Origin: an uncultured Bacteroidota bacterium | Lineage (GTDB): Bacteria; Bacteroidota; Bacteroidia; Bacteroidales; UBA12481 | Length of the DNA: 64,000 nt | NCBI GenBank assembly: GCA_903851365.1 | Contig: CAINOB010000002.1 | Coordinates: 76,051 to 140,050, forward strand | Direction of reading: 5' to 3' | Shown: positions 39,079 to 53,446 of the stretch, in pieces | Numbering within the stretch: the first letter of the stretch is position 1 | Layout: every line of letters begins with the position of its first letter | Notes under the pieces: model-generated | What the model was told of the DNA's origin: nothing | Seen by the model: only the letters and a program-made list of their open reading frames with translations | Databases searched by the model: none | Made by a program: the position numbers and the translations under genes

Positions 39079-39142
39079 AGTTGCCAACTTTAACCAGGAT
39101 GTCATACTTGGCACTGCCTTCTGCTTAAAGTTGGCAACTTTA
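39076..39142. repeat. 18-bp perfect inverted repeat spanning both stop codons of convergent genes
   Basis: TAAAGTTGCCAACTTTAA (39076-39093) is the exact reverse complement of TTAAAGTTGGCAACTTTA (39125-39142); the spacer is 31 bp. Each arm is itself nearly palindromic. Arm 1 supplies the TAA of the DUF1207 gene, and arm 2 supplies the TAA of the minus-strand ATPase gene. It could act as a bidirectional terminator, although no T-run follows, or mark the edge of an inserted ATPase cassette. Confidence 0.6.
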
Positions 39143-40459
39143 TTCTTTTGGCAACTCTAATCCAAATTTTGCAAATGCACCTGCAAGGTAAAGTGGCAGG
39201 AAGGCAATTTTTTCCTTCTTCAGAATTCCCTTTGGACCGGAATGAAAAACAACTGAGTAGGGCGGTTGGTAAGTTTCGCGGTAAAGATGCAAACTTCGAA
39301 GCTTACCTGAAGGGCCATCTTTAACTTCAACCGGAACGACCTTTCCTTCCAACACGACTAAATAATCAACTTCGGCGTTACTGTTTTTGGCATCCCTTGC
39401 CCAATAATATAGTTGATTGTTGGTTGATGTGGCAAATTCCTGTCCCACAAATTGTTCTGCCAGTTGTCCGCGGTAAATAGCCAGTAAATTTTTATGGTTC
39501 AGCGCTTCATTATAATCTATTCCCATCACCCTGTTCATCAATCCGATATCAAGAAAGATGTTCTTAAATCTTTTATCTGAAGCATGTACTTCTAACGGTA
39601 TCCCAATGCTGCTTAACGATTTTACCTTTTTTGCTATTCTGGCCAAAACCAAGCTTTCGTAAGCTTTTCTGATCGTTGGGATCGTGAAATCAACAGCCAA
39701 ACCTGTGTATTTTATTTGTCGGCCAACATTGGCTGCTACAGCTGAAAAAACAGCATTCAGGCAAGTAATATCTGTTTTCGGTTTGTATTTATTGAAATCC
39801 AACCGGTAGGTTTCACAAATCTCATCCTGCACTTCTAAGGCTTGCTTCAGGGATTTCGTCTTCACATATTCGTTGATGCACTCAGGCATCCCGCCAACCA
39901 GCCAATAAATTCTTAGCTGGTCCAAAAGAAAGTTATGAACGGAGTCCGGGACTTCCGTGATCTGCTTGTTACAAATTTCAGCCGCCTTTTTATAATCTGA
40001 TGCCAGAAGAAATTCTGAAAAAATCAATGGATGAACTTCCAGCGATTGGATACGACCAACAGGGAATGATATCTCACTATAAGCGAATTCTAAGAGTGAT
40101 CCTGCGGCAACAACATGTAAATCAGGCATTTTTTCATAAAAATAGCGAAGAGCCGTAATGGCTTTCGGACATACCTGGATTTCATCAAAAAAAAGTAAAG
40201 TTTTTCCCGCAATGACATCTATACCTGTCCTTAGCTCCAGTTCAGAACATATCTTCTGAGGATTTAAGTCGCCGCTGAACAACGAAACCAATTCAGAATT
40301 TTCTTCAAAATCAACTTTTAGATAATATTCAAATCGTTCGCGTGCAAGTTTTTCAATAAGCCATGTTTTACCAACCTGCCTCGCACCGCGCAATAACAAA
40401 GGTTTTCGTCTTTGCCTGTCTACCCAGTCGGTCAGATTTGAGAATACATATCTCTCCAT
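39140..40459 (-). CDS. AAA ATPase with DUF4143 domain
   Basis: 439 residues. Walker A is GARQVGKT (25-32), Walker B LLFFDEIQ, and sensor region VVAAGSLLEFA. The C-terminal half has a winged helix (SLVLARIAKKVKSL) and a DUF4143 nuclease-like core with EVDYLV and VPVEVKDG (D...ExK pattern). This is a common, often mobile, Bacteroidota family (AAA_14-DUF4143) of unknown function. The promoter is at 40480-40510. The gene stands alone, opposite the DUF1207 gene, and is flanked by the inverted repeat. Confidence 0.92.
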   Translation of the reverse strand: MERYVFSNLTDWVDRQRRKPLLLRGARQVGKTWLIEKLARERFEYYLKVDFEENSELVSLFSGDLNPQKICSELELRTGIDVIAGKTLLFFDEIQVCPKAITALRYFYEKMPDLHVVAAGSLLEFAYSEISFPVGRIQSLEVHPLIFSEFLLASDYKKAAEICNKQITEVPDSVHNFLLDQLRIYWLVGGMPECINEYVKTKSLKQALEVQDEICETYRLDFNKYKPKTDITCLNAVFSAVAANVGRQIKYTGLAVDFTIPTIRKAYESLVLARIAKKVKSLSSIGIPLEVHASDKRFKNIFLDIGLMNRVMGIDYNEALNHKNLLAIYRGQLAEQFVGQEFATSTNNQLYYWARDAKNSNAEVDYLVVLEGKVVPVEVKDGPSGKLRSLHLYRETYQPPYSVVFHSGPKGILKKEKIAFLPLYLAGAFAKFGLELPKE

Positions 40460-42100: not shown

Positions 42101-42137
42101 CAAAGATACCTTTTCTCCCTCTCTTTCCCTACCTTTG
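42101..42137. promoter_or_regulatory. Divergent, back-to-back -7 boxes for doxX-fusion and hsdM
   Basis: Minus strand: TATCTTTG (42108-42101) is a perfect -7 box for the DoxX gene. Plus strand: TACCTTTG (42130-42137) is a perfect -7 box for hsdM, 26 bp before its start. They are separated by 21 bp. The -33 region of each would fall on or near the -7 box of the other, so polymerase on one promoter should exclude the other. No good TTTG -33 boxes are seen. Confidence 0.55.
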
Positions 42138-42162
42138 AAACACAATCAAACCGAATCTGGTA

Positions 42163-44643
42163 ATGGCGATTAAGAAATCTGAACTCTATTCTTCTCTTTG
42201 GGCGAGTTGCGATGAATTGCGTGGTGGCATGGATGCCAGCGAATATAAGGACTATGTGCTGCTGATGTTGTTTATCAAGTATATCAGCGACAGGTATGCC
42301 GGTTTGCCTTATGCTCCTATAACTGTTCCCGAGGGCGCCAGTTTTGCAGATATGGTGGCGCTGAAGGGCAATCCTAATATCGGCGACCTGATCAACAAAA
42401 AGATTATCGGCCCGATTGAGCAAGCCAATAAATCACTGGGTTCCATCAAGGTTGATTTTGATAATCCGGAGAAGCTGGGTACCGGCGATGAAAAGGTTAA
42501 ACGTCTGTCGAATCTGATTGCCATTTTTGAGAAACCCGAACTCAATTTCAGCAAAAATAAAACTGAGGGCGACGATATCCTGGGTGATGCTTATGAATAC
42601 CTGATGCGGAATTTTGCCACGGAAAGCGGCAAAAGCAAAGGGCAATTTTATACCCCGGCTGAGGTGAGCCGTATCATGTCAAAGATCATCGGCATCAACA
42701 GTACTAATTCCAATCCCAATACCACTATTTATGATCCCACCTGCGGATCGGGTTCGCTGCTGCTGAAAGTAGCCGATGAAGCCGAAAGGAAGATCACCAT
42801 ATACGGACAGGAAAAGGAGAGTGCCACGGCTGGTCTGGCACGTATGAACATGGTACTGCACGATTGCCCCACAGCATTGATCCGGTGCACCGGAAACAGC
42901 ACCCTATCTGATCCCCAGTTTCTGGAAGATAACGGTGGACTTAAGTTGTTCGATTACATTGTTGCCAATCCGCCATTTTCCTCAAAAAACTGGGCCAACG
43001 GACTGGATATATCCTCTAAAACGGCAGACAAATACGGTCGATTTGAGAGTTTTGGCATTCCTCCGGATAAAAATGGCGATTATGCTTTTCTATTGCACAT
43101 GATCCGCTCGTTAAAGAGCAAGGGAAAAGCAGCAGTAATTCTACCTCATGGAGTTTTATTTCGCGGAAATGCAGAGGCTGAAATCCGGAAAAACCTGATT
43201 CGCAAAGGATATATCAAGGGCATTATTGGATTGCCGGCCAACCTGTTTTATGGCACCGGCATCCCTGCCTGCCTCATCGTTATTGACAAAGAAAATGCCG
43301 GTAACCGGAAAGCCATTTTCATGATCGATGCCGGTAAGGGATTCACCAAGGATGGCCCTAAAAACCGCTTGCGCGATCAGGACATACACCGGATTGTGGA
43401 CGTATTCAATAAGCAGCTGGAAACACCGAAATATAGCCGGATAGTTCCCATCACCGAAATTGAAGAAAAGGAATTCAATCTCAATATCCCCCGTTACATT
43501 GATAGTCAGGAGGAGGAGGACATTCAGGATATCGAAGCTCACCTGAAAGGGGGAATCCCCAATGCCGATATCGATGCTTTGAATAATTACTGGGAGGTAT
43601 ATCCCGGATTACGAACTGTCCTTTTTGCTCCTCATGAGAGGCCGGGATACAGTCAGCAGAAAATCGATAAAACAACTATAAAAAGCGCCATTTTCGCGCA
43701 TCCGGAATTTACGAGCTACAGCAAAAAGGTTTTTGAGGTATTCGAAAACTGGAAGCAAAAAACCATTCCGGTTCTCAGGAACCTTGGCATGGGTGTGAAA
43801 CCCAAAAAACTGATACACGATATTTCGGAAAAATTACTGGAGAGTTTTTCCAATCTGAGTCTGATCGACCGGTACGATGTGTACCAGCATCTGATGGCTT
43901 ATTGGAATGAAACCATGCAGGACGATGTGTTCGTTATTTCGGACGACGGATGGAAAGCCGGGCGCGAGGTGTACCGGATTACGAAATCGACCAAAGGTAA
44001 AAGCGATAAAACCCGGGTAAAGGAAGTGGAAGGCATGGAAGGAATCGAAAGCAAACTGATCCGGCCAAATTTGATTATCGACCGGTATTTTGCTGCTGAA
44101 AAATCGAATATCGAAACCCTCGAAAGCCAGCGGGATTCCTTGGTGGCGCAAATGGAGGAAATGGAAGAAGAGCATGGCGGTGAAGATGGTATGCTGGCGG
44201 AATGCCGGAATGATAAAGACAAAATCACGGCTGTTGGTGTGAAGGACCGGGTGAAAAAAATTACGTCGGGCTCCTTGTGGAAAAAAGAGGACGAAGATGA
44301 AATAAAGGTTCTTAAGGCTTATGTAAAACTCGCCGATAATCAGGCTGATTTGAATAAGAAAATCAAGGATCAGCAAAAGGCTTTGGAGACAAAAGTCTGG
44401 AACAAATACAGGGAGCTATCTGATGATGACATTAAGTCGATAGTGGTGGATGCCAAATGGATGAAAACCATGGATACTGCTGTTTACACTGAGATGCAGC
44501 GTATCAGCCAGCGGCTTACGCAACGGATCAAAGAACTGGCTGAACGTTATGAAATTCCGCTTCCACAGCAATTGAAAGAATTAAAATTATTGGAAGATAA
44601 AGTAAATGCGCACCTGTCTAAAATGGGGTTTGTATGGAATTAG
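42163..44643 (+). CDS. hsdM: Type I restriction-modification methyltransferase subunit HsdM
   Basis: 826 residues, longer than the usual 500-550. The HsdM N-terminal domain (ELYSSLWASCDELRGGMDAS) precedes the methylase core: motif I D191-PTCGSGS and catalytic N269-PPF. Downstream of about residue 500 there is a long mostly helical extension rich in coiled-coil-like heptads (about 610-826: ESQRDSLVAQMEEMEEEHGG, LKAYVKLADNQADLNKKIKD). It should methylate adenine with HsdS and supply the DNA-modification half of the system. It overlaps the DUF1016 gene by 10 bp. Confidence 0.95.
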   Translation: MAIKKSELYSSLWASCDELRGGMDASEYKDYVLLMLFIKYISDRYAGLPYAPITVPEGASFADMVALKGNPNIGDLINKKIIGPIEQANKSLGSIKVDFDNPEKLGTGDEKVKRLSNLIAIFEKPELNFSKNKTEGDDILGDAYEYLMRNFATESGKSKGQFYTPAEVSRIMSKIIGINSTNSNPNTTIYDPTCGSGSLLLKVADEAERKITIYGQEKESATAGLARMNMVLHDCPTALIRCTGNSTLSDPQFLEDNGGLKLFDYIVANPPFSSKNWANGLDISSKTADKYGRFESFGIPPDKNGDYAFLLHMIRSLKSKGKAAVILPHGVLFRGNAEAEIRKNLIRKGYIKGIIGLPANLFYGTGIPACLIVIDKENAGNRKAIFMIDAGKGFTKDGPKNRLRDQDIHRIVDVFNKQLETPKYSRIVPITEIEEKEFNLNIPRYIDSQEEEDIQDIEAHLKGGIPNADIDALNNYWEVYPGLRTVLFAPHERPGYSQQKIDKTTIKSAIFAHPEFTSYSKKVFEVFENWKQKTIPVLRNLGMGVKPKKLIHDISEKLLESFSNLSLIDRYDVYQHLMAYWNETMQDDVFVISDDGWKAGREVYRITKSTKGKSDKTRVKEVEGMEGIESKLIRPNLIIDRYFAAEKSNIETLESQRDSLVAQMEEMEEEHGGEDGMLAECRNDKDKITAVGVKDRVKKITSGSLWKKEDEDEIKVLKAYVKLADNQADLNKKIKDQQKALETKVWNKYRELSDDDIKSIVVDAKWMKTMDTAVYTEMQRISQRLTQRIKELAERYEIPLPQQLKELKLLEDKVNAHLSKMGFVWN

Positions 44644-45692
44644 CAAATAAGGATACTCACTTAATGCAAGAATTGGTTGCATTAATCGAAGAAGGAAGGA
44701 AACAATTGTCTTTTGCTGCCAATGCTACTACAACCTTAACCTATTGGCACATTGGCAAGCGGGTAAATGATGATATTTTAGAAAACCAACGAGCTGAATA
44801 TGGAAAGCAGATTGTCGTATCAGTGGCACGACAATTGGCATCACAATACGGTAAGAGTTTTGAAGAGAAGAATTTGCGAAGAATGATGCAGTTTGCTGAG
44901 ATTTTCAACGATGAACAGATTGTCGTATCGCTGATACGACATTTGAGCTGGACGCACTTTATAGCACTTATTCCTTTAAAAAGCTCCCTTCAGCGTGATT
45001 TCTATGCGCAAATATGCAGAGTTGAGGGCTGGACTGTAAAAACGTTACGGGGAAAAATTGATAGTATGCTTTTTGAACGCACTGCCATCAGCAAAAAGCC
45101 TGAAGAATTAATAAAGCAGGAATTGAAAGCCTTAAATGACAATGATATATTAACACCTGACCTTGTTTTCAGAGACCCTTATTTCCTCGATTTTATTGGA
45201 TTAAAAAACACCTTTTCCGAAAAGTCGCTCGAGGATGCTATTCTGCATGAACTTGAACAGTTTATATTAGAAATGGGCAACGGCTTTACTTTTGTAGGAC
45301 GCCAGAAACGAATGATAATCGATGGTGAGGATTTTTATCTCGATCTTTTGTTTTACCACCGAAAACTCAAACGATTGGTAGCAATTGAACTGAAATTGGG
45401 CAAATTTAAAGCCGCATACAAAGGGCAAATGGAACTCTATTTAAGATGGCTTGAAAAATATGATATGCAATCCGGTGAAGAAACGCCGATTGGACTTATA
45501 CTTTGCTCAGAAGGCAACAATGAGCAAGTTGAACTACTGCAATTGGAACGCTCAGGTATAAAAGTTGCGGAATACCTCACTGAGCTACCCGATCGGCAAT
45601 TGCTTAAACAAAAGCTACATACATCTATTGAGCTAAGCAAAAAACGCTTGAGCCAAACCGGGGATATTTTTGAAGGAGGTTCTGATGAATAA
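44634..45692 (+). CDS. DUF1016 (YhcG-type) PD-(D/E)xK nuclease
   Basis: 352 residues. The N-terminal domain has LTYWHIGKRVNDDILENQRAEYG and QIVVSVARQLASQYGKSFEEKNLRRM, which is DUF1016_N. The C-terminal PD-(D/E)xK nuclease shows FVGRQKRMIIDGEDFYLDLLFYHRKL and VAIELKLG. DUF1016 nucleases are often near type I RM loci and other defence genes. Starts inside the hsdM 3' end (10-bp overlap), so it is transcribed with hsdM and probably translated in a coupled way. Its body is AT-richer than hsdM, which suggests a separate origin. Confidence 0.92.
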   Translation: MELANKDTHLMQELVALIEEGRKQLSFAANATTTLTYWHIGKRVNDDILENQRAEYGKQIVVSVARQLASQYGKSFEEKNLRRMMQFAEIFNDEQIVVSLIRHLSWTHFIALIPLKSSLQRDFYAQICRVEGWTVKTLRGKIDSMLFERTAISKKPEELIKQELKALNDNDILTPDLVFRDPYFLDFIGLKNTFSEKSLEDAILHELEQFILEMGNGFTFVGRQKRMIIDGEDFYLDLLFYHRKLKRLVAIELKLGKFKAAYKGQMELYLRWLEKYDMQSGEETPIGLILCSEGNNEQVELLQLERSGIKVAEYLTELPDRQLLKQKLHTSIELSKKRLSQTGDIFEGGSDE

Positions 45693-45739
45693 TCTTTGTG
45701 GAGTTATTAGTCAAACAGGTATCGGTCTTATGGTCATTT

Positions 45740-45848
45740 TCGATGCCGGAAACACAAGTGTGAAAGAAAGATCCAGGAATTGCAGAAAGAAACCCGACTC
45801 ATCAGAATTGGAAGCAAAAAATCAGGATATTGGAGAATTCCGCAATGA
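45740..45848 (+). pseudogene. Degraded winged-helix C-terminal fragment
   Basis: In one frame from about 45762 to stop 45846-45848 the sequence reads KIQELQKETRLIRIGSKKSG then YWRIPQ, the C-terminal wing pattern of wHTH tails in AlbA_2/Fic-type regulators. A frame shift of one base upstream (NTSVKE) would continue the recognition helix. The first part of any such protein is absent. A 62-codon open frame overlaps it, but is not convincing. It sits between the DUF1016 nuclease and hsdS, so an older gene was lost here. A short tandem TGTCAGGATAA repeat follows at about 45861. Confidence 0.45.
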
Positions 45849-45921
45849 ACTTCGCTGATGTCAGGATAAATGTCAGGATAATTGATCCAGCAGAGTAAAT
45901 GACCAAATCACCAAAACTTAA

Positions 45922-47118
45922 ATGACAACAGCAATAGTAAGACCGGGATATAAACAGACTGAGGTTGGGGTGATACCGGAAGACTGGGTGGTAATCCGAT
46001 TAGGGGATATTTCAGATGTTAAAACTGGACCATTTGGTACAGCTCTGCATCAAAAGGATTATGTAGAGGACGGTACTCCCATAATTACTGTTGAACATTT
46101 AGGAGAACAAGGAGTTGTTCACCAAAACTTGCCAATGGTTTCTAACACAGATAAAAAAAGGTTGAGTTCCTATACTCTTCAAACTGGCGATATTGTGTTC
46201 AGCCGTGTTGGATCAGTCGATAGAAATTCCCTAATTCGGGAGACGGAAAATGGATGGCTTTTTTCAGGAAGATTACTAAGAATACGCCATGATCTGAAGC
46301 ATGTTTATTCTGCATATTTGAGTTATTATTTTCAACAAGAGCTTGTCAAGCAACGTATTAGAAACGTTGCTGTTGGGCAAACCATGGCCTCATTGAATAC
46401 ACAAATACTCAAAAATGTCGATATTGCCCTTCCTTCTAAGGTACCCGAACAAACCGCCATCGCCACCGTCCTTTCTGATACCGATTCCCTCATCACCAAT
46501 CTTGAAAAACTCATCGAAAAAAAGCGGGCAATCAAGCAGGGGGCAATGCAGCAATTGCTGAGGCCGAAAGAGGGATGGAAGATAAAGATGTTGGGGGAGA
46601 TTGCCAATGTAACAATGGGCCAATCACCGCTTTCCAAGTTTTATAATAAATTAGGAATTGGCCTACCGCTAATTCAAGGGAATGCTGACATAGCAGACAG
46701 AAAAACAATAATTAGGGCTTTTACTTCAAATGTTACAAAACGAGGTAACATTGGTGACATTGTTATGTCAGTTAGAGCACCTGTAGGAGAGATTTCTAAG
46801 ACTGCATTTGATTGCTGCTTAGGTAGAGGAGTTTGTGCTATCTCATTTAGAAATGATTACTTATATCACTTCCTTATATATTTTGAAAAATCATGGGCTC
46901 AACTTTCAACAGGATCGACTTTTGATAGTGTTAATTCTAAGCAAGTAAAAGAGTTGGAAATTCCAATTCCATCACCGGTTGAACAAGTCCGAATTGCTCA
47001 AATTCTTACTGACATGGACACCGAAATCTCTGTACTTGAGCAAAAGCTCTCCAAATACAAACTCTTGAAACAGGGCATGATGCAAGAATTGTTAACCGGT
47101 AAAACGCGATTGGTATGA
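45922..47118 (+). CDS. hsdS: Type I restriction-modification specificity subunit HsdS
   Basis: 398 residues with two target-recognition domains. TRD1 (about 20-165) starts EVGVIPEDWVVIRLGDIS; conserved central helix region VPEQTAIATVLSDTDSLITNLEKLIEKK. TRD2 (about 215-350) starts IKMLGEIANVTMGQSP; closing helix VEQVRIAQILTDMDTEISVLEQK. Full-length, so two half-sites are recognised. The TRDs are lower in GC than the conserved helices, as usual for exchanged TRDs. The stop overlaps the DUF4062 gene by ATGA. Confidence 0.95.
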   Translation: MTTAIVRPGYKQTEVGVIPEDWVVIRLGDISDVKTGPFGTALHQKDYVEDGTPIITVEHLGEQGVVHQNLPMVSNTDKKRLSSYTLQTGDIVFSRVGSVDRNSLIRETENGWLFSGRLLRIRHDLKHVYSAYLSYYFQQELVKQRIRNVAVGQTMASLNTQILKNVDIALPSKVPEQTAIATVLSDTDSLITNLEKLIEKKRAIKQGAMQQLLRPKEGWKIKMLGEIANVTMGQSPLSKFYNKLGIGLPLIQGNADIADRKTIIRAFTSNVTKRGNIGDIVMSVRAPVGEISKTAFDCCLGRGVCAISFRNDYLYHFLIYFEKSWAQLSTGSTFDSVNSKQVKELEIPIPSPVEQVRIAQILTDMDTEISVLEQKLSKYKLLKQGMMQELLTGKTRLV

Positions 47119-48737
47119 AAAGGATAAAGGTTTTCATAAGCAGTGTGCAAAGCGAGTTCGTCGCAGAACGCCGGGCACTGTATGAATATCTGACCACCGA
47201 TGCTTTGTTTGGCCGATTTTTTGAGCCGTTTGTTTTCGAAAACCTTCCGGCGGTCGATTATCGGGCTGATAGGGTATATCTGGACGAAGTGAACAAGTGT
47301 GACATCTATCTGGGTATTTTCGGGAAAATGTATGGGTTCGAAGATCAGGAGGGTATTTCGCCTACAGAACGGGAATTCGATCAGGCCACAATTCTGCATA
47401 AAACCCGACTGGTTTTTCTGACTCAGCACAAAACTGCCGAAAGGGATCCGAAAGAGTTGGCACTGATCCGAAAGGCTGAAAATGCCGTGGTAAGGAAGAA
47501 GTTTACGTCACCTGACGATCTGAAATTTGCCGTGTATGCCGCATTGATCCGTTACCTCGAGGATAAAGATTTCATCCGCACAGGTCCGTATGATGCCGCT
47601 ATTTGTAAAGGCGCAACCTTAGAAGATCTTGATAATGAACAAATTTCTGAGTTTGTGCGACTGGCGCGGGCAAAACGGGGATTTCCCTTAACCATAGATG
47701 CAGCACCGCTGAAGATCCTGACGCATCTGAATCTGGTTCGGGAAAATGGTTTAACCCATGCGGCCGTTCTGCTTTTTGGAAAGCAGCCGCAGCGGTTTTT
47801 GATTAGTTCAGAGGTTAAGTGCGCCCAGTTTCACGGAAATGAAGTGCGCAAACCCATTCCTTCCTATCATGTATACAAAGGTGATCTCTTTCAGTTGGTG
47901 AACCAAGCGGTTGACTTTGTCCTATCCCGGATCGACCTCTCTGTTGGTACCCGTGCCGAAAGCGTTGATGTACCGATTGAGTACGAAATTCCCCGGCCTG
48001 CAGTAACCGAAGCCATTGTGAATGCTGTTGCCCACCGCGATTACACCGGCAACGGAAGCGTTCAGGTCATGCTGTTCCGGAACCGTCTGGAAATATGGAA
48101 TCCCGGTCAATTGCCTCATGATCTTACCTTTGAAAAATTAAGGCAGCCCCACCGTTCGGAACCCCATAATCCCCTGATCGCGGAGCCATTGTACCTGACC
48201 GGTTTGATCGAACGGCTTGGAACCGGTATTCCTGACATGATTGAGCTGTGCAAAACGGTTGGTTTACGTGAGCCGGAATTTACCCAGGAGGATAGTTTTC
48301 GGACTGTTTTATGGCGGAAAGAGGCTCCCAGTGGGGAAGTTGGTGGGGAAGCTATCCTACAACCCACCCTACAAGCTATAGACCAAACCGAACAAGGCGA
48401 AAAATCAGATATTCAGCAAGTTAACAACGAACTGCCAGAATTCACCGGACAAGTTACCCCACAAGCTACCCTACAAGCTGAGGGCGAAATTTTAGAATCT
48501 GTTCAAAGGATTGCATTAGTTTTGGAAAACGAAATGAAACGTTCCGAAATCCAGGAGAGTCTTGGATTAAACGACCGGGCAAATTTCATAAACAGCTATT
48601 TGGTTCCAGCATTGGAAGCCGGTTACATCACATTGACATATCCTGAAAGTCCGAATCATCCCAACCAAAAATACAGGTTGACAGACAAAGGCATGGCGTT
48701 GAAAAATCTGCTTAAACAATTGAGAAGGAAAAAATGA
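47115..48737 (+). CDS. DUF4062-GHKL ATPase-wHTH protein inside the type I RM operon
   Basis: 540 residues. Residues 3-95 are a DUF4062 domain (IKVFISSVQSEFVAERRALY, CDIYLGIFGKMYGFEDQEG, SPTEREFDQA). About 185-400 are an ATP-binding AAA_4/HATPase_c_4 type domain, with PRPAVTEAIVNAVAHRDYTG (GHKL N-box: N and HRDY), RNRLEIWNPGQLP and ERLGTGIPDMIELC. A Gln/Pro-rich linker follows (about 420-465, with two QATLQA/QPTLQA-type units), then a winged-helix C-terminus (about 470-540). It overlaps hsdS by 4 bp and hsdR by 4 bp (ATGA both times), so it is made as part of the RM complex operon. Function unknown; sensing or control of restriction is inference. Confidence 0.85.
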   Translation: MKRIKVFISSVQSEFVAERRALYEYLTTDALFGRFFEPFVFENLPAVDYRADRVYLDEVNKCDIYLGIFGKMYGFEDQEGISPTEREFDQATILHKTRLVFLTQHKTAERDPKELALIRKAENAVVRKKFTSPDDLKFAVYAALIRYLEDKDFIRTGPYDAAICKGATLEDLDNEQISEFVRLARAKRGFPLTIDAAPLKILTHLNLVRENGLTHAAVLLFGKQPQRFLISSEVKCAQFHGNEVRKPIPSYHVYKGDLFQLVNQAVDFVLSRIDLSVGTRAESVDVPIEYEIPRPAVTEAIVNAVAHRDYTGNGSVQVMLFRNRLEIWNPGQLPHDLTFEKLRQPHRSEPHNPLIAEPLYLTGLIERLGTGIPDMIELCKTVGLREPEFTQEDSFRTVLWRKEAPSGEVGGEAILQPTLQAIDQTEQGEKSDIQQVNNELPEFTGQVTPQATLQAEGEILESVQRIALVLENEMKRSEIQESLGLNDRANFINSYLVPALEAGYITLTYPESPNHPNQKYRLTDKGMALKNLLKQLRRKK

Positions 48738-51700
48738 GCACCATTGGCCAAATTGAACGTTTAACCCAAAACCGGATAGTCAAGCTGTTCTGTGAGCAAC
48801 TGGGTTACCAATACCTCGGGAATTGGGAAGATCGTTTGAATAACAGCAATATTGAGGTGTTTCTGCTGCGTAAATATTTATTCATCAAGGCCGGATACGA
48901 CGGGAATTTGGTTGAAAGGGCGATATATAAGCTACAAAAAGAGGCTGGGAATTACGATCGCAGCCTGTATGGCAATAACCATGAAGTATATAAACTGCTT
49001 CGGTACGGAGCTGAAGTGACAGCCAATCCGGGCGACAAATATCAAAGAATTCATTTCATAAATTGGGACGAACCGGAAAAGAATGATTTTGCCATTGCAG
49101 AGGAGGTAACGGTGCAGGGCAACCGGGAAAAAAGGCCTGATATTGTGCTATATATTAATGGAATAGCGGTTGGATTACTTGAGCTTAAAAGGAGTACCGT
49201 TTCCATCGGCGATGGTATTCGCCAGAACCTCGTTAATCAGCAGCCTGATTTTATTCAATCTTTTTTCTCTACCATCCAGCTGGTGATGGCCGGTAATGAT
49301 ACAGAAGGGCTGAGTTATGGAACTATCGGCACACCTGAGAAATTCTTTCTGCGCTGGAAAGAGGATATCGGCGATACCAGCATGCTGCAGGTGGATAAGT
49401 ACCTGATCAAACTGTGCAATAAGAAGCGGCTGCTTGAATTGATTTATGATTTTGTGCTGTTCGATGGTGGTCAGAAAAAGCTGCCCCGTCATCATCAGTA
49501 CTTCAGCATTAAAGCTGCCCAGGAGTATATCCGCCGGCGTGAAGGCGGCATAATCTGGCATACCCAGGGAAGCGGCAAGAGCATTGTTATGGTGATCCTG
49601 GCCAAGTGGATATTGGAAAATAATTCGCATGCACGGGTTGTTATACTTACCGACCGCACGGAGCTTGACAAACAGATTGAACGGGTATTCAATGATGCCG
49701 GCGTGGAGCTTAAAAGGACATCCAGCGGTAAAGAACTGATGGACCAACTGAGCCAGCCTTCCCCGAGGCTTTTATGCTCTCTGATCCACAAATTTGGCAA
49801 AAGGGATGTGGACGATTTCGACAAGTTTATTGAGGAGGTCAAAAATGGCCCGACGCAAACTGTGGGTGAGATTTTTGTGTTTGTGGATGAATGTCACCGT
49901 ACCCAAAGCGGCAAGCTGCATAAGGTGATGAAAGCTATGCTGCAAAATGCCGTATTCATTGGTTTTACAGGCACACCGCTGTTAAAGGCCGATAAGCAAA
50001 CCAGTCTGGAAGTGTTCGGCGGATATATCCATACCTATAAATTCAATGAAGGGGTTGAAGATCAGGTTATCCTGGATTTAGTTTATGAAGCCAGGGATAT
50101 CGACCAGCGATTATCATCGACAGAAAAAGTGGATGCCTGGTTTGATGCCAAAACAAAGGGGCTGAACGATTTTCAGAAATCAGCCCTGAAAATGAAATGG
50201 GGAACCATGCAGGTGGTATTAAGTTCCCGTTCCCGGATGGACAAGGTGATTAGCGATATCGTCTTTGATTTTAGCGTGAAACCCCGGCTTAGTTCTCACG
50301 TGGGAAATGCCATTCTGGTGGCAGGCAGCATTTATGAAGCCACCAAATACTTCGACCTTTTTCAGAAAACGGAATTCAAAAACCGTTGTGCGATTGTTAC
50401 CTCTTATAATCCCTCAGTACAGGATATAACTACCGAAGATACCGGCGCCAATACAGAAACGGATAAGGAGTTTATTTACAAAATTTACAACGATCTGCTG
50501 CAGGATGTTGTGGCCACAGGTGGCAAAACCAAGACAGAGACTTATGAAGATTTGGCAAAAACTAAATTCGTTAAGGAACCGGCCAATATGCGGTTACTGA
50601 TTGTGGTTGATAAACTGCTGACCGGTTTTGATGCTCCTCCATGCACCTTTCTGTATATCGATAAAAGTATGCAGGACCATGGTTTGTTTCAGGCGATATG
50701 CCGGGTAAACCGATTGGATACAGAGGACAAACAGTTTGGATATATTGTTGACTATAAGGATCTTTTCACAAAGGTGGAGGATGCTGTTGCAGTTTATACT
50801 TCCGAATTGGATTATGAAGAATTTAAGAAGGAAGATTGCGATATTCTTCTGCAGGATCGGTTGAAGAAGGGCAGGGAGAGGCTCGATAATGCGCTTGAGG
50901 AGATCGCTCTGCTGTGTGAACCTGTTCCATCACCTAAACTGGAAATTGATTATCAGCATTATTTCTGTGGCAATACTGAAATAGCGGAAGATCTTAAGAA
51001 CACCGAGGTCCGACGCACAGCACTGTATAAATCAACGGTTGCTTTGGTGAGGGCGTTTGCTAATTTATCGGCTGAAATGGCTGAAGCTGGTTATTCAGCT
51101 TCAGAACAGGTTGAAATATCGAGGAAGGTGGATTTTTATTTAAAGTTGAGAGAAGAAATCAGGATGGCCAGTGGAGAAACGCTGGATATGAAAGCTTACG
51201 AAGCAGATATGCGTCATCTGATTGATAATTACATACAAGCCGATGAACCCAGAAAAATTTCCCCTTTTGGTGATATGACACTGATAGAATTGCTGGTCAA
51301 ATCGGGAATTACGGAAACGATCAATAGTTTACCGAAATCAATCAGGGGCAACCAGCAGGCAGTTGCAGAAACCATCGAAAATAATGTGAGGCAGAAAATC
51401 ATCCGCGAGCATTTGATCGATCCGGCATTTTTTGAGGAAATGAGTACCCTTTTGAATGAGGTGATCAGGGAACGTAAAGCAAATGCAATCAGTTATGAGG
51501 AATATCTGAAGAAAATTGCGGAGCTGGCTGGTCAGGTGATGGATGGCAAGAAAGATACCACCCCGGTAACTTTAAGAACTCCCGCATTAAGGGCACTTTA
51601 TAATAATCTGGGTGCCGACGAAGAGCTTGCGCTTAAGGTGCATGAAAGTATAATTCTATATAAACCTAATGGTTGGCGGGGAATCGATACCCGCGAAAAG

Positions 51701-51790
51701 GTAGTGAAAAAGGCCATTTATGATATTCTTGGAAATGTTGAGGATACCGAGCGGATATTTGAAATTGTGAAAAAGCAAGCGGAGTATTGA
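48734..51790 (+). CDS. hsdR: Type I restriction-modification endonuclease/translocase HsdR
   Basis: 1018 residues. The N-terminal nuclease domain has GNREKRPDIVLYINGIAVGLLELKRS (D...ExK). The SF2 motor has Walker A TQGSGKS (277-283), DECH at 385-388 and FTGTPLL, and the second RecA lobe ends QAICRVNRL (motif VI). Then a long C-terminal helical domain. It cuts unmodified DNA after translocation in complex with HsdM and HsdS. It starts within the stop of the DUF4062 gene and ends 1 bp before the metallopeptidase start. Confidence 0.96.
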   Translation: MSTIGQIERLTQNRIVKLFCEQLGYQYLGNWEDRLNNSNIEVFLLRKYLFIKAGYDGNLVERAIYKLQKEAGNYDRSLYGNNHEVYKLLRYGAEVTANPGDKYQRIHFINWDEPEKNDFAIAEEVTVQGNREKRPDIVLYINGIAVGLLELKRSTVSIGDGIRQNLVNQQPDFIQSFFSTIQLVMAGNDTEGLSYGTIGTPEKFFLRWKEDIGDTSMLQVDKYLIKLCNKKRLLELIYDFVLFDGGQKKLPRHHQYFSIKAAQEYIRRREGGIIWHTQGSGKSIVMVILAKWILENNSHARVVILTDRTELDKQIERVFNDAGVELKRTSSGKELMDQLSQPSPRLLCSLIHKFGKRDVDDFDKFIEEVKNGPTQTVGEIFVFVDECHRTQSGKLHKVMKAMLQNAVFIGFTGTPLLKADKQTSLEVFGGYIHTYKFNEGVEDQVILDLVYEARDIDQRLSSTEKVDAWFDAKTKGLNDFQKSALKMKWGTMQVVLSSRSRMDKVISDIVFDFSVKPRLSSHVGNAILVAGSIYEATKYFDLFQKTEFKNRCAIVTSYNPSVQDITTEDTGANTETDKEFIYKIYNDLLQDVVATGGKTKTETYEDLAKTKFVKEPANMRLLIVVDKLLTGFDAPPCTFLYIDKSMQDHGLFQAICRVNRLDTEDKQFGYIVDYKDLFTKVEDAVAVYTSELDYEEFKKEDCDILLQDRLKKGRERLDNALEEIALLCEPVPSPKLEIDYQHYFCGNTEIAEDLKNTEVRRTALYKSTVALVRAFANLSAEMAEAGYSASEQVEISRKVDFYLKLREEIRMASGETLDMKAYEADMRHLIDNYIQADEPRKISPFGDMTLIELLVKSGITETINSLPKSIRGNQQAVAETIENNVRQKIIREHLIDPAFFEEMSTLLNEVIRERKANAISYEEYLKKIAELAGQVMDGKKDTTPVTLRTPALRALYNNLGADEELALKVHESIILYKPNGWRGIDTREKVVKKAIYDILGNVEDTERIFEIVKKQAEY

Positions 51791-51791
51791 G

Positions 51792-52505
51792 ATGGATCAA
51801 CTGAATTTAGGCGATATTACTGTTGAGGTGGAGTTGAAAGACATTAAAAATATCCACCTGAGTGTTTATCCACCTTCCGGCAGAGTGAGGATAGCGGCTC
51901 CCTTGCGCATGAATCTTGATACCATCAGGATTTATGCCATCTCAAAATTGGGCTGGATAAAAAAGCAGCAGCAAAAATTCAGGTCGCAGGTTAGGGAGGC
52001 GCCCCGGGAATATCTTAATAAAGAGGGTCACTATTATTTAGGGAAGAGGTATTTGCTGAAGATAGTGGAATGTGATGCACCGCCGGTAGTCAGAATTAAG
52101 CACCACACCATCGAGTTGCAGGTCCGGCCAGGTTCAGGTTTGTCGAAGAAACAGGAGGTCATGGAGGAATGGTACCGGGAGCAATTAAGGGATTTAGCTC
52201 AACCATTAATTGAAAAGTGGGAAAAAACGCTGAAGGTATCGCTGAATGAGTTAGGAATCCGGAAGATGAAAACCAAATGGGGAACCTGCAATCGTGAAGC
52301 CGGGCGAATCTGGTTAAACCTCGAGTTGGCCAAAAAACCGATTCACTGCATCGAATATATCATCGTCCACGAGCTGGTTCATCTTTTGGAACGCAACCAT
52401 AACAGCATCTTCATTGCTTATATGGATAATTTCCTGCCCGACTGGAAACACCTGAAAAATGAGCTGAATCAATTGCCGGTGAGTCATCGGGATTGGGGGT
52501 ACTAA
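51792..52505 (+). CDS. YgjP-like (DUF45) zinc metallopeptidase
   Basis: 237 residues. Zinc motif H193-E-L-V-H197 with H203 (LLERNHN), matching the HExxH-x5-H pattern of YgjP/DUF45 proteases. WGTCNREAGRIWLNLELAKKP precedes it, as in other members. Placement directly after hsdR (1-bp gap) is a known association of this family with type I RM. The peptidase's substrate is unknown; proteolysis of an HsdR complex component is only a hypothesis. Confidence 0.9.
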   Translation: MDQLNLGDITVEVELKDIKNIHLSVYPPSGRVRIAAPLRMNLDTIRIYAISKLGWIKKQQQKFRSQVREAPREYLNKEGHYYLGKRYLLKIVECDAPPVVRIKHHTIELQVRPGSGLSKKQEVMEEWYREQLRDLAQPLIEKWEKTLKVSLNELGIRKMKTKWGTCNREAGRIWLNLELAKKPIHCIEYIIVHELVHLLERNHNSIFIAYMDNFLPDWKHLKNELNQLPVSHRDWGY

Positions 52506-52678
52506 AATGAATTAAAATGCCCGTAATTTTTTTCAGAATTTTGGTAACCAATTGAACGATAACGAATAAAAAGCAACTAAAAACAGAAATCGGACCGTTT
52601 TTATTTAAAATTGAATGGTTTCGGTTTAGGGTTAATAGAATTAACCAGTGGCTAAAGAATCACGAACATTATTTAAGC

Positions 52679-53446
52679 TTGTTCCAGACTTTGTTATCAG
52701 TTGGAGCTATTTTAATTGCAGTTTATGCCCTCTTAAGTGACAATAAGATAGATGTGGAAACAAGTCGAAGGTATGCTCAAAGTGTAAGGCAGGACAGCAG
52801 TCAACATCAAGAAGCGATGGGAATGTATTTGATTCAAAATCGATTAATGGAACAATACACCGAAAATGCTGATTCGATGTTAAGCCAATTAAAACTTCAA
52901 GGGAAAATAGCTCAGCAACAATATGAAAGTCAGGTTATTTTGAATCAATCTGGAATTATTTTGGATGTAATTACTATTCATGATACGCTAAAATCTGATA
53001 TAATTCATGACGGTCACAAAGCAGTGTTACCCGAGATGTTTTTGTCATTAGATAATTATGGTAAGCGAAAGGCTCTTGATGTTAAAGTTGATATTAATTT
53101 TTACTCTCCTGTAGAGCGTTTTGTTCAGCATCAGTCTATACTTACAAAAATTATTGAACCTTCAGCCCACCAAGAACAGCGTTATTATCCTGTAATCTTG
53201 TTTAATGATGCAAAATTGTTTTACTCGGAGATCTGTATCCACTGGAGAGATGAACTAACCAACAAGTTAGACAGCGTTCGGCATAATCTTGAATGGACAA
53301 GGAGTATAGATTATAAATACTTTTACCATATAATGGCGCCTGAACAATTATCACGAGTTAAAAAAAACATGAATACTTGGGTTAAAATTCCCGATGCCTC
53401 CACATACCTTGATGCTGTACAGTGGCGTATTTATGAAAAGAAGTAA
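52679..53446 (+). CDS. Single-pass membrane protein, no clear start codon
   Basis: Using the first TTG (52679) gives 255 residues: a transmembrane helix FQTLLSVGAILIAVYALL at the N-terminus and a hydrophilic, mostly helical middle, no known domain. The frame is open back to 52556 with no ATG, GTG or TTG in between. The extra 41 codons encode plausible sequence (FLFKIEWFRFRVNRINQW), so the true start may be an ATT or ATA upstream. It is the AT-rich last gene of the defence island, on the same strand as the RM operon but 173 bp after it. Unknown function. Confidence 0.55.
   Translation: MFQTLLSVGAILIAVYALLSDNKIDVETSRRYAQSVRQDSSQHQEAMGMYLIQNRLMEQYTENADSMLSQLKLQGKIAQQQYESQVILNQSGIILDVITIHDTLKSDIIHDGHKAVLPEMFLSLDNYGKRKALDVKVDINFYSPVERFVQHQSILTKIIEPSAHQEQRYYPVILFNDAKLFYSEICIHWRDELTNKLDSVRHNLEWTRSIDYKYFYHIMAPEQLSRVKKNMNTWVKIPDASTYLDAVQWRIYEKK

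What the first reader, a model, noticed from the sequence alone, without database searches (positions are those of the whole stretch)
42101..53446. Type I RM operon with embedded DUF1016 nuclease, DUF4062-GHKL-wHTH protein and YgjP protease
Seen: hsdM, DUF1016, hsdS, DUF4062-AAA_4, hsdR and YgjP are all plus-strand, joined by overlaps of 10, 4, 4 bp and a 1-bp gap (the only larger gap holds a gene fragment). Known: DUF1016 and DUF45 proteins are often found near type I RM, and DUF4062 occurs in NLR-like and defence proteins. Inference: the DUF4062-GHKL gene, coupled on both sides to hsdS and hsdR, may sense invasion or self-damage and license HsdR or the second nuclease, making a composite defence system rather than plain RM.
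Basis: partly seen in the sequence, partly recalled or inferred. Interest (0 to 1): 0.85.

Follow-up and report, generated by a model that had tools for sequence, protein, structure and literature searches.

The report
NADase gene inside a restriction operon
A bacterial DNA-restriction operon carries, neatly placed between two of its core genes, a probable cell-suicide enzyme that would destroy the cofactor NAD, and the same kind of gene turns up in other, different restriction operons, which suggests a layered defence against viruses.

Summary
The DUF4062 gene is not an oddity of this genome. Of 47 loci with both domains (the window's included), 23 have a same-strand hsd gene within 6 kb and 14 directly adjacent, in several slots (S|R, M|S, R|M, before R) of different type I systems. 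The rest are not near hsd genes. The S|R slot looks filled independently at least twice. Close relatives of this operon have nothing there, or PARIS (AriAB), a GmrSD-type gene, or AbiEii. The slot is a place for defence cargo, and the DUF4062 gene is accessory. DUF4062 was reported in May 2026 as a TIR-like NADase (Swarozyc). The window protein has a compatible fold and keeps the likely catalytic Glu (E87); DUF4062 takes the place of AlbA_2 in an AlbA_2-GHKL-wHTH architecture. Best reading: an NADase abortive-infection effector, probably co-translated, backing up restriction. That Hsd subunits license it (PrrC-like) is possible but untested. New variant of a known kind.

The parts
42163..44643 (+). 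hsdM, N6-adenine methyltransferase subunit (826 aa)
   Evidence: Pfam N6_Mtase E 5e-103 and HsdM_N; NPPF and DPTCGSG motifs
44634..45692 (+). DUF1016/YhcG PD-(D/E)XK nuclease (352 aa), cargo at the M|S junction
   Evidence: Pfam YhcG_C E 4e-47, DUF1016_N E 1e-41; D...ExK motif; absent from the M|S junction of G006, which has the same 10-bp overlap
45693..45921 (+). gap with a remnant of the C-terminal end of a GHKL-family gene (frame 1 of the stretch)
   Evidence: about 26 residues, best 61% identity, E 0.001 in the local set
45922..47118 (+). hsdS, specificity subunit (398 aa)
   Evidence: Pfam Methylase_S E 2e-37, two stretches
47115..48737 (+). DUF4062 (about 1-151) - middle/GHKL (156-404) - linker - wHTH (458-532) protein, 540 aa; predicted TIR-like NADase effector with candidate catalytic E87
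   Evidence: Pfam; KpSwz alignment; fold; conservation
48734..51790 (+). hsdR, translocase/nuclease subunit (1018 aa)
   Evidence: TIGR00348 E 3e-148; PD..ExK, GSGKS and DECH motifs
51792..52505 (+). YgjP-like metallopeptidase (237 aa), general companion of this HsdR lineage
   Evidence: Pfam YgjP-like E 1e-59; HELVH; next to hsdR in 10 of 11 other loci of the lineage

Best explanation
This is an intact-looking type I restriction-modification operon that carries accessory defence genes at its gene junctions. At the hsdS|hsdR junction it carries a self-contained abortive-infection effector: an N-terminal DUF4062 (TIR-like NADase) joined to a GHKL ATPase module and a C-terminal winged helix. The gene sits exactly at the ATGA stop-start overlap, so it is probably co-translated with hsdS and hsdR. 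Most likely mechanism (inferred): the NADase is held off by the GHKL/wHTH part. If a phage survives or disables restriction, the GHKL/wHTH part detects a phage component or the resulting state, the DUF4062 domains come together, NAD+ is destroyed, and the cell dies or stops growing before phages are released. Shown here: gene order, overlaps, domain make-up, predicted fold, conservation of the candidate catalytic and ATP-binding residues, recurrence in several RM slots, dispensability in sister operons. Inferred: NADase activity, trigger, and cooperation with restriction.
For: DUF4062 in P0001; phmmer match of its first 183 residues to KpSwz 10wc (E 0.0008), with P0001 E87 aligned to an Ala in a chain that is probably the E97A mutant (PMC13174449, parts 1 and 2 of 6 read). 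E87 is kept in 45 of 46 ungapped rows of 48; GHKL residues E299, N303, H307, N329 and G371 in 48 of 48 (the window protein is in that alignment twice). Model residues 1-151 take the DNPH1/NDT/TIR-type fold (DNPH1 Z 14.2, RPS4 TIR Z 12.2, SPARTA TIR Z 12.0, SARM1 Z 11.7), 156-404 match 3lmm (Z 22.9), 458-532 match the 4rgl winged helix (Z 12.7, rmsd 1.1). Association with hsd genes: 23 of 47 within 6 kb and 14 of 47 adjacent, against 4 of 43 and 2 of 43 for GHKL genes without DUF4062 (Fisher p 6e-5 and 0.002); against an expectation from HsdM density, 17 v 0.94 and 11 v 0.034 of 42. Several slots and clades. Single clade of the S|R copies rejected, p 0.003. The same slot holds PARIS AriAB, GmrSD or AbiEii in sister operons, or nothing. 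Junction DNA shows precise exchange.
Against: No activity was measured. In PMC13174449 only TEP1 of four purified human DUF4062 proteins (TEP1, NWD1, NWD2, NPHP3) hydrolysed NAD+, so the domain does not guarantee the activity. The top structural neighbours are nucleotide N-hydrolases (DNPH1, MilB), and unrelated IF2 GTPase chains reach the same Z (11.7) as SARM1, so the fold comparison alone does not single out TIR. KpSwz shows no GHKL part, so its trigger (phage portal) cannot be carried over. 24 of 47 homologues are not near hsd genes, so cooperation with RM is not needed everywhere. One divergent row (L119) has Ala at the catalytic position.
Confidence: 0.6

Rival explanations
1. PrrC-like guard: the DUF4062-GHKL protein physically docks on the HsdM/S/R complex, which keeps the NADase off; phage anti-restriction proteins that disable the complex release it, and the cell dies.
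For: PrrC is embedded in the type I locus ecoprrI, silenced by EcoprrI and freed by T4 Stp (PMC2610378 and PMC12707154, passages); that prrC lies between hsdS and hsdR is my recall. A sister operon holds PARIS AriAB in the very same slot; PARIS senses the anti-restriction protein Ocr (PMC9122126, passages). 4-bp overlaps with both hsdS and hsdR; presence in different type I systems. [quoted passage not shown]
Against: 24 of 47 homologues are not near hsd genes, two Legionella plasmid copies lie beside partition genes. RM slots differ (S|R, M|S, R|M), so no fixed neighbour. The slot also holds cargo with no known link to anti-restriction, such as GmrSD and AbiEii.
Confidence: 0.25
2. Nucleotide-hydrolase effector: the DUF4062 domain cleaves (d)NMPs, perhaps modified phage nucleotides, like DNPH1 or MilB, instead of NAD+.
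For: Best structural neighbours of residues 1-151 are DNPH1 (Z 14.2) and CMP N-glycosidases (Z about 13), slightly above TIR domains (Z about 12).
Against: Two DUF4062 proteins tested by others, KpSwz and TEP1, hydrolyse NAD+ (PMC13174449), and KpSwz is the one solved structure that the DUF4062 domain matches by sequence with E under 0.01. A shared fold does not fix the substrate.
Confidence: 0.08
3. Regulator: the wHTH protein controls expression of the RM operon, as a control protein would, and has no toxic role.
For: C-terminal winged helix; overlap with hsdS and hsdR.
Against: Candidate catalytic Glu kept in 45 of 46 ungapped rows; sister operons do without the gene; wHTH type and copy number vary (one to three Fic-like_C copies, or HTH_24, among the DUF4062 proteins).
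Confidence: 0.07

Closest known systems
Swarozyc (KpSwz; DUF4062 TIR-like NADase), PMC13174449, preprint May 2026
   Same: DUF4062 domain with the conserved Glu; C-terminal winged-HTH part
   Different: KpSwz (326-residue chain) shows no GHKL part; a term search of the paper's main text found 'restriction', 'HATPase' and 'GHKL' 0 times; its supplements, which show operon contexts, could not be read
PrrC in EcoprrI (hsd operon with embedded anticodon nuclease)
   Same: Suicide effector gene embedded in a type I operon
   Different: Different enzyme (no ABC ATPase found by Pfam in P0001); often not linked to RM; no evidence yet of silencing by Hsd subunits
PARIS (AriA/AriB)
   Same: Found in the same S|R slot of a sister operon (L228)
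   Different: AAA + DUF4435 proteins; neither matched in P0001
TgvAB in a V. cholerae type I operon (PMC11411939, passages) and DarTG2 between hsdS and hsdR in EPEC (PMC12255303, passages)
   Same: Defence genes embedded in a type I operon; DarTG2 is at the same S|R junction
   Different: Type IV restriction and toxin-antitoxin cargo, not DUF4062; Gammaproteobacteria
AlbA_2-GHKL(-wHTH) proteins (Schlafen AlbA_2 + HATPase_c_4)
   Same: Residues 156-404 and, in some, the Fic-like_C winged helix; two also lie in M|S (L168) or next to hsdR (L157) with overlaps
   Different: N-terminal AlbA_2 in place of DUF4062

Membership tests
Type I restriction-modification | HsdM, HsdS and HsdR present, enzyme motifs intact | tested here: met
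Swarozyc / DUF4062 TIR-like NADase | DUF4062 domain with TIR-like fold | tested here: met
   Pfam E 1e-19; KpSwz match; TIR/NDT-type fold, though IF2 GTPases reach the Z of SARM1
Swarozyc / DUF4062 TIR-like NADase | Conserved catalytic Glu | tested here: met
   E87 in 45 of 46 ungapped rows of 48; equivalence to KpSwz E97 inferred from the alignment
Swarozyc / DUF4062 TIR-like NADase | C-terminal auxiliary HTH/winged domain of the KpSwz type | tested here: inconclusive
   A winged helix is there (Fic-like_C), but the KpSwz match ends at residue 149 with the domain as query and at 182 with the whole protein, and a GHKL part is added
Swarozyc / DUF4062 TIR-like NADase | NAD+ hydrolysis and activation by phage portal | not testable with these tools
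   needs biochemistry
PrrC / EcoprrI-type guard | Effector gene embedded in the hsd operon | tested here: met
   S|R junction, 4-bp overlaps
PrrC / EcoprrI-type guard | ABC ATPase plus anticodon-nuclease triad | tested here: not met
   Pfam gives only DUF4062, HATPase_c_4 and Fic-like_C; the triad itself was not searched for
PrrC / EcoprrI-type guard | Orthologues invariably linked to type I RM | tested here: not met
   24 of 47 have no same-strand hsd gene within 6 kb; some of these sit near contig ends
PrrC / EcoprrI-type guard | Silenced by Hsd complex, released by anti-restriction protein | not testable with these tools
   needs experiment
PARIS | AAA + DUF4435 | tested here: not met
   no such match for P0001
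AlbA_2-GHKL family | HATPase_c_4 GHKL part | tested here: met
   3lmm Z 22.9
AlbA_2-GHKL family | N-terminal SLFN_AlbA_2 | tested here: not met
   absent in P0001, DUF4062 in its place

The most novel reading that the evidence does not exclude
A PrrC-like guard built with a TIR-like NADase: the DUF4062-GHKL-wHTH protein monitors the type I enzyme (or its inhibition by phage anti-restriction proteins) through its GHKL ATPase part and destroys NAD+ when restriction is disabled. The same core module, with either DUF4062 or AlbA_2 in front, would be a plug-in 'RM guard' that restriction operons acquire again and again.
Probability: 0.22. Interest if true: 0.85.

Novelty: new variant of a known kind. 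Interest (0 to 1): 0.57.

Why it matters
If true, it joins two defence layers, sequence-specific restriction and NAD+-depletion suicide, in one operon. It makes the question 'are genes embedded in type I operons guards or mere passengers?' testable on a natural series: sister operons with an empty slot, DUF4062, PARIS, GmrSD or AbiEii at the same junction. It also gives an RM context to the newly described DUF4062 NADases.

Tried and rejected
Rejected: 'DUF4062 found only here'. Rejected: one fixed six-gene system, since DUF1016 is near hsd in only 3 of 30 sampled loci (flanks of about 1.5 kb, home-made profiles), YgjP follows HsdR with or without DUF4062, and DUF4062 is absent from close relatives. 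Rejected: AlbA_2 in the window protein. Rejected: a single clade of the S|R copies (AU p 0.003). The four rows were grouped by gene order, but after identities and a first tree had been seen, and the L225 branch is long, so the p-value is somewhat optimistic; replacement of an older copy would look the same as a second capture.

Led nowhere: a viral-contig scan found no relative. The paper searches showed no text linking DUF4062 or a TIR-like NADase with an embedded type I position. Of these, searches listed only 15 of 206, 12 of 373 and 15 of 141 papers; the library is open-licence PMC only; the supplements of PMC13174449 could not be read, and its text says that some DUF4062 genes are in operons with known defence genes. 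KpSwz does not appear among the 50 Foldseek and 50 VIA-align rows shown (library ends April 2026), which says nothing about its fold.

Weak points told: the control of 43 GHKL genes without DUF4062 comes from other genomes than most DUF4062 loci, and only 3 of the 43 were Pfam-scanned (all three AlbA_2). Group g188 genomes are rich in type I systems; therefore uses each genome's own HsdM count, entered by hand, with a spacing model of my own. In one search five loci with only fragmentary or doubtful hsdM pieces (L105, L111, L115, L118, L140) were counted as not associated; they count among the 23 (L118 and L140 also among the 14). L036, L037, L041 and L043 (no genome handle) and L144 (HsdM not counted) were left out. 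Loci where DUF4062 or GHKL is broken or not found on one ORF (such as L120-L123, L138, L141-L143, L145) were left out of both; so were L042 and L044, which lie next to hsdR but whose DUF4062 part was cut off by start trimming or a split frame. L225, found through HsdR, is in no count. Many of the 47 loci share a genus (g188), so they are not independent. 'Not near hsd' is not the same as alone: L107 lies beside a ResIII-type gene, L043 beside a UvrD-PDDEXK gene, L113 beside a helicase-like fragment. In the structure alignment 5 of 15 rows are GHKL proteins without DUF4062, so residues 1-150 rest on at most 10 useful rows.
Full report
OBSERVATION. Family searches agree. Motifs are intact: HsdM NPPF and DPTCGSG, HsdR PD..ELK, GSGKS and DECH, DUF1016 D..ELK, YgjP HELVH. 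The ORF at 52679-53446 has no family match and is separated by 173 bp; I leave it out. The DUF1016-hsdS gap holds about 26 residues like the C-terminal end of GHKL-family genes; the best hits are genes without DUF4062.

WHAT THE DUF4062 GENE IS. Pfam gives DUF4062 (5-91), HATPase_c_4 (315-397) and Fic-like_C (462-523). There is no AlbA_2 domain. Of the relatives of residues 156-404 that lack DUF4062, 7 were Pfam-scanned and 7 of 7 have an N-terminal AlbA_2 (L132, L133, L134, L147, L157, L168, L169). DUF4062 therefore takes the place of AlbA_2. A preprint of May 2026 (PMC13174449; parts 1 and 2 of 6 read, plus a term search) reports that DUF4062 is a TIR-like NADase, that K. pneumoniae Swarozyc causes abortive infection with E97 as the active site, and that its winged auxiliary domain binds the phage portal; of four human DUF4062 proteins only TEP1 was active. 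A sequence search of solved structures finds KpSwz (10wc) with E 0.0008 for residues 1-183; the KpSwz residue facing window E87 is Ala, which fits the E97A construct of that paper (inference). E87 is kept in 45 of 46 ungapped rows of a 48-row alignment (47 relatives plus P0001; the window protein is present twice); the neighbouring E85 is His in 11 rows; the GHKL positions E299, N303, H307, N329 and G371 are kept in 48 of 48. The AlphaFold model (15 sequences, mean pLDDT 76.9, pTM 0.49) matches DNPH1 (Z 14.2) and TIR domains (RPS4 Z 12.2, SPARTA Z 12.0, SARM1 Z 11.7) over 1-151, with unrelated IF2 GTPase chains at Z 11.7; the AlbA_2-GHKL structure 3lmm (Z 22.9) over 156-404; and the Fic-protein winged helix 4rgl (Z 12.7, rmsd 1.1) over 458-532 (Foldseek). 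Residues 405-457 have pLDDT under 50.

IS THE RM LINK REAL? Relatives were collected by the DUF4062 protein alone: 149 genomes of relatives (58 with some match at E 1e-20, many of them covering only the GHKL part), 27 loci in the species collection, and 395 genomes of the phylum (37 with E 1e-45). Of 47 ORFs with both DUF4062 and GHKL, 23 have a same-strand hsd gene within 6 kb and 14 within 60 bp; of 43 GHKL genes without DUF4062 the numbers are 4 and 2 (Fisher p 6e-5 and 0.002). Because many DUF4062 loci come from genomes rich in type I systems (up to 17 HsdM), I also compared with each genome's own HsdM density: 17 of 42 near against 0.94 expected, 11 of 42 adjacent against 0.034 expected. 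Slots: hsdS-D-hsdR with 4-bp overlaps on both sides (window, L035, L225) or with two small genes after hsdS (L036); hsdM-D-hsdS with 4-bp overlaps on both sides (L093, L101, L103, L104, L106); hsdR-D-hsdM (L097, L126); D-hsdR of a different HsdR family (L042, L127; L044 with a split DUF4062 frame). Others lie beside an aminotransferase or NeuB gene (L128, L130), beside other restriction or helicase genes (L107, L043, L113), or on two Legionella plasmids. On the gene tree, RM-embedded and other copies interleave, with at least 9 changes of state, gains and losses not told apart and the doubtful loci counted as not embedded.

ONE HSD LINEAGE, ONE SLOT, MANY CARGOES. The window's HsdR has close relatives (E 1e-180) in 12 of 247 genomes, the window's own included. 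In the other 11, the S|R junction is unreadable in one (G016, contig end). In the other ten it is empty in three (G006, G031, G606), holds a DUF4062-GHKL gene in two (G005, G615), GmrSD in G018, DUF6577 + AbiEii in G560, an AriAB PARIS fusion in G033 (PADLOC E 1e-151), five genes in G037 of which two were scanned (AAA_5 and McrBC by Pfam; the McrBC one has no PADLOC match), and a 188-aa gene without Pfam match in G064. G006 is 84% identical in HsdR and 88% in HsdM and has plain M-S-R-YgjP. Its hsdS ends ...CGATTGGTATGA, where ATG starts hsdR; in the window the same ...CGATTGGTATGA starts the DUF4062 gene, and hsdR again starts in an ATGA overlap. The cargo thus sits scar-free at the overlap. 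Likewise the 10-bp M|S overlap of G006 corresponds to the 10-bp M|DUF1016 overlap of the window. Holding the S|R copies of the window, L035 and L036 and that of G615 (L225) together as one clade is rejected (p 0.003), so the slot looks filled by this family at least twice.

MECHANISM. I commit to a back-up abortive-infection effector: restriction first, NAD+ depletion if the phage gets through, with the GHKL-wHTH part as sensor and switch. Overlaps, architecture and recurrence are shown; NADase activity, trigger and cooperation are inferred. A PrrC-like guard released when the Hsd enzyme is inhibited is the main rival: PrrC is embedded in ecoprrI and freed by T4 Stp (PMC2610378 and PMC12707154, passages), and PARIS, which senses the anti-restriction protein Ocr (PMC9122126, passages), occupies the same slot in G033. 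Against it stand the copies away from hsd genes and the mix of cargo in the slot; but PrrC's homologue RloC is also mostly unlinked (8 of 72 at a type I or III locus, PMC2610378, passage).

RELATION TO WHAT IS KNOWN. Defence genes embedded in type I operons are known: PrrC; TgvAB in V. cholerae (PMC11411939, passages, which also mention RloF between hsdR and hsdS); DarTG2 between hsdS and hsdR in EPEC, whose authors call the site a potential recombination hotspot (PMC12255303, passages). What seems new here, as far as the listings of my paper searches go, is a DUF4062 TIR-like domain in that position, its joining to the GHKL-wHTH module, its presence in different type I systems, and the series of sister operons that shows the slot empty, with DUF4062 and with PARIS. 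I therefore rate it a new variant of a known kind.

Noticed in passing
   Followed up: partly
own genome G000:C35 (L134:1-5274): A 1198-aa Eco57I-type restriction-methylase gene is followed after 6 bp by an AlbA_2-GHKL-Fic-like_C gene: the same module with AlbA_2 in front, beside another kind of RM enzyme.
   Followed up: partly
   Followed up: partly
window 45693-45921: Remnant of the C-terminal end of a GHKL-family gene between DUF1016 and hsdS; in L045 the same gap holds a Bro-N gene, so M|S looks like a second cargo slot.
   Followed up: partly
L149 and L150 (Legionella hackeliae and L. anisa plasmids): DUF4062-GHKL genes about 51% identical to the window protein beside plasmid partition genes; the L. 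hackeliae copy is split into two ORFs.
   Followed up: partly
L135:4872-7064, L126:8891-10735: The C-terminal winged helix is repeated (3 and 2 Fic-like_C copies), so the family's C-terminal end varies in copy number.
   Followed up: no
window 47115-48737, residues 158-379: The middle/GHKL part matches PADLOC models of argonaute-associated SIR2 proteins (E 6e-15): a second case of this part next to an NADase-type domain.
   Followed up: no
   Followed up: no
window 39140-40459 (minus strand): AAA_14-DUF4143 ATPase (PADLOC candidate PDC-S01) upstream of the operon on the opposite strand.
   Followed up: no
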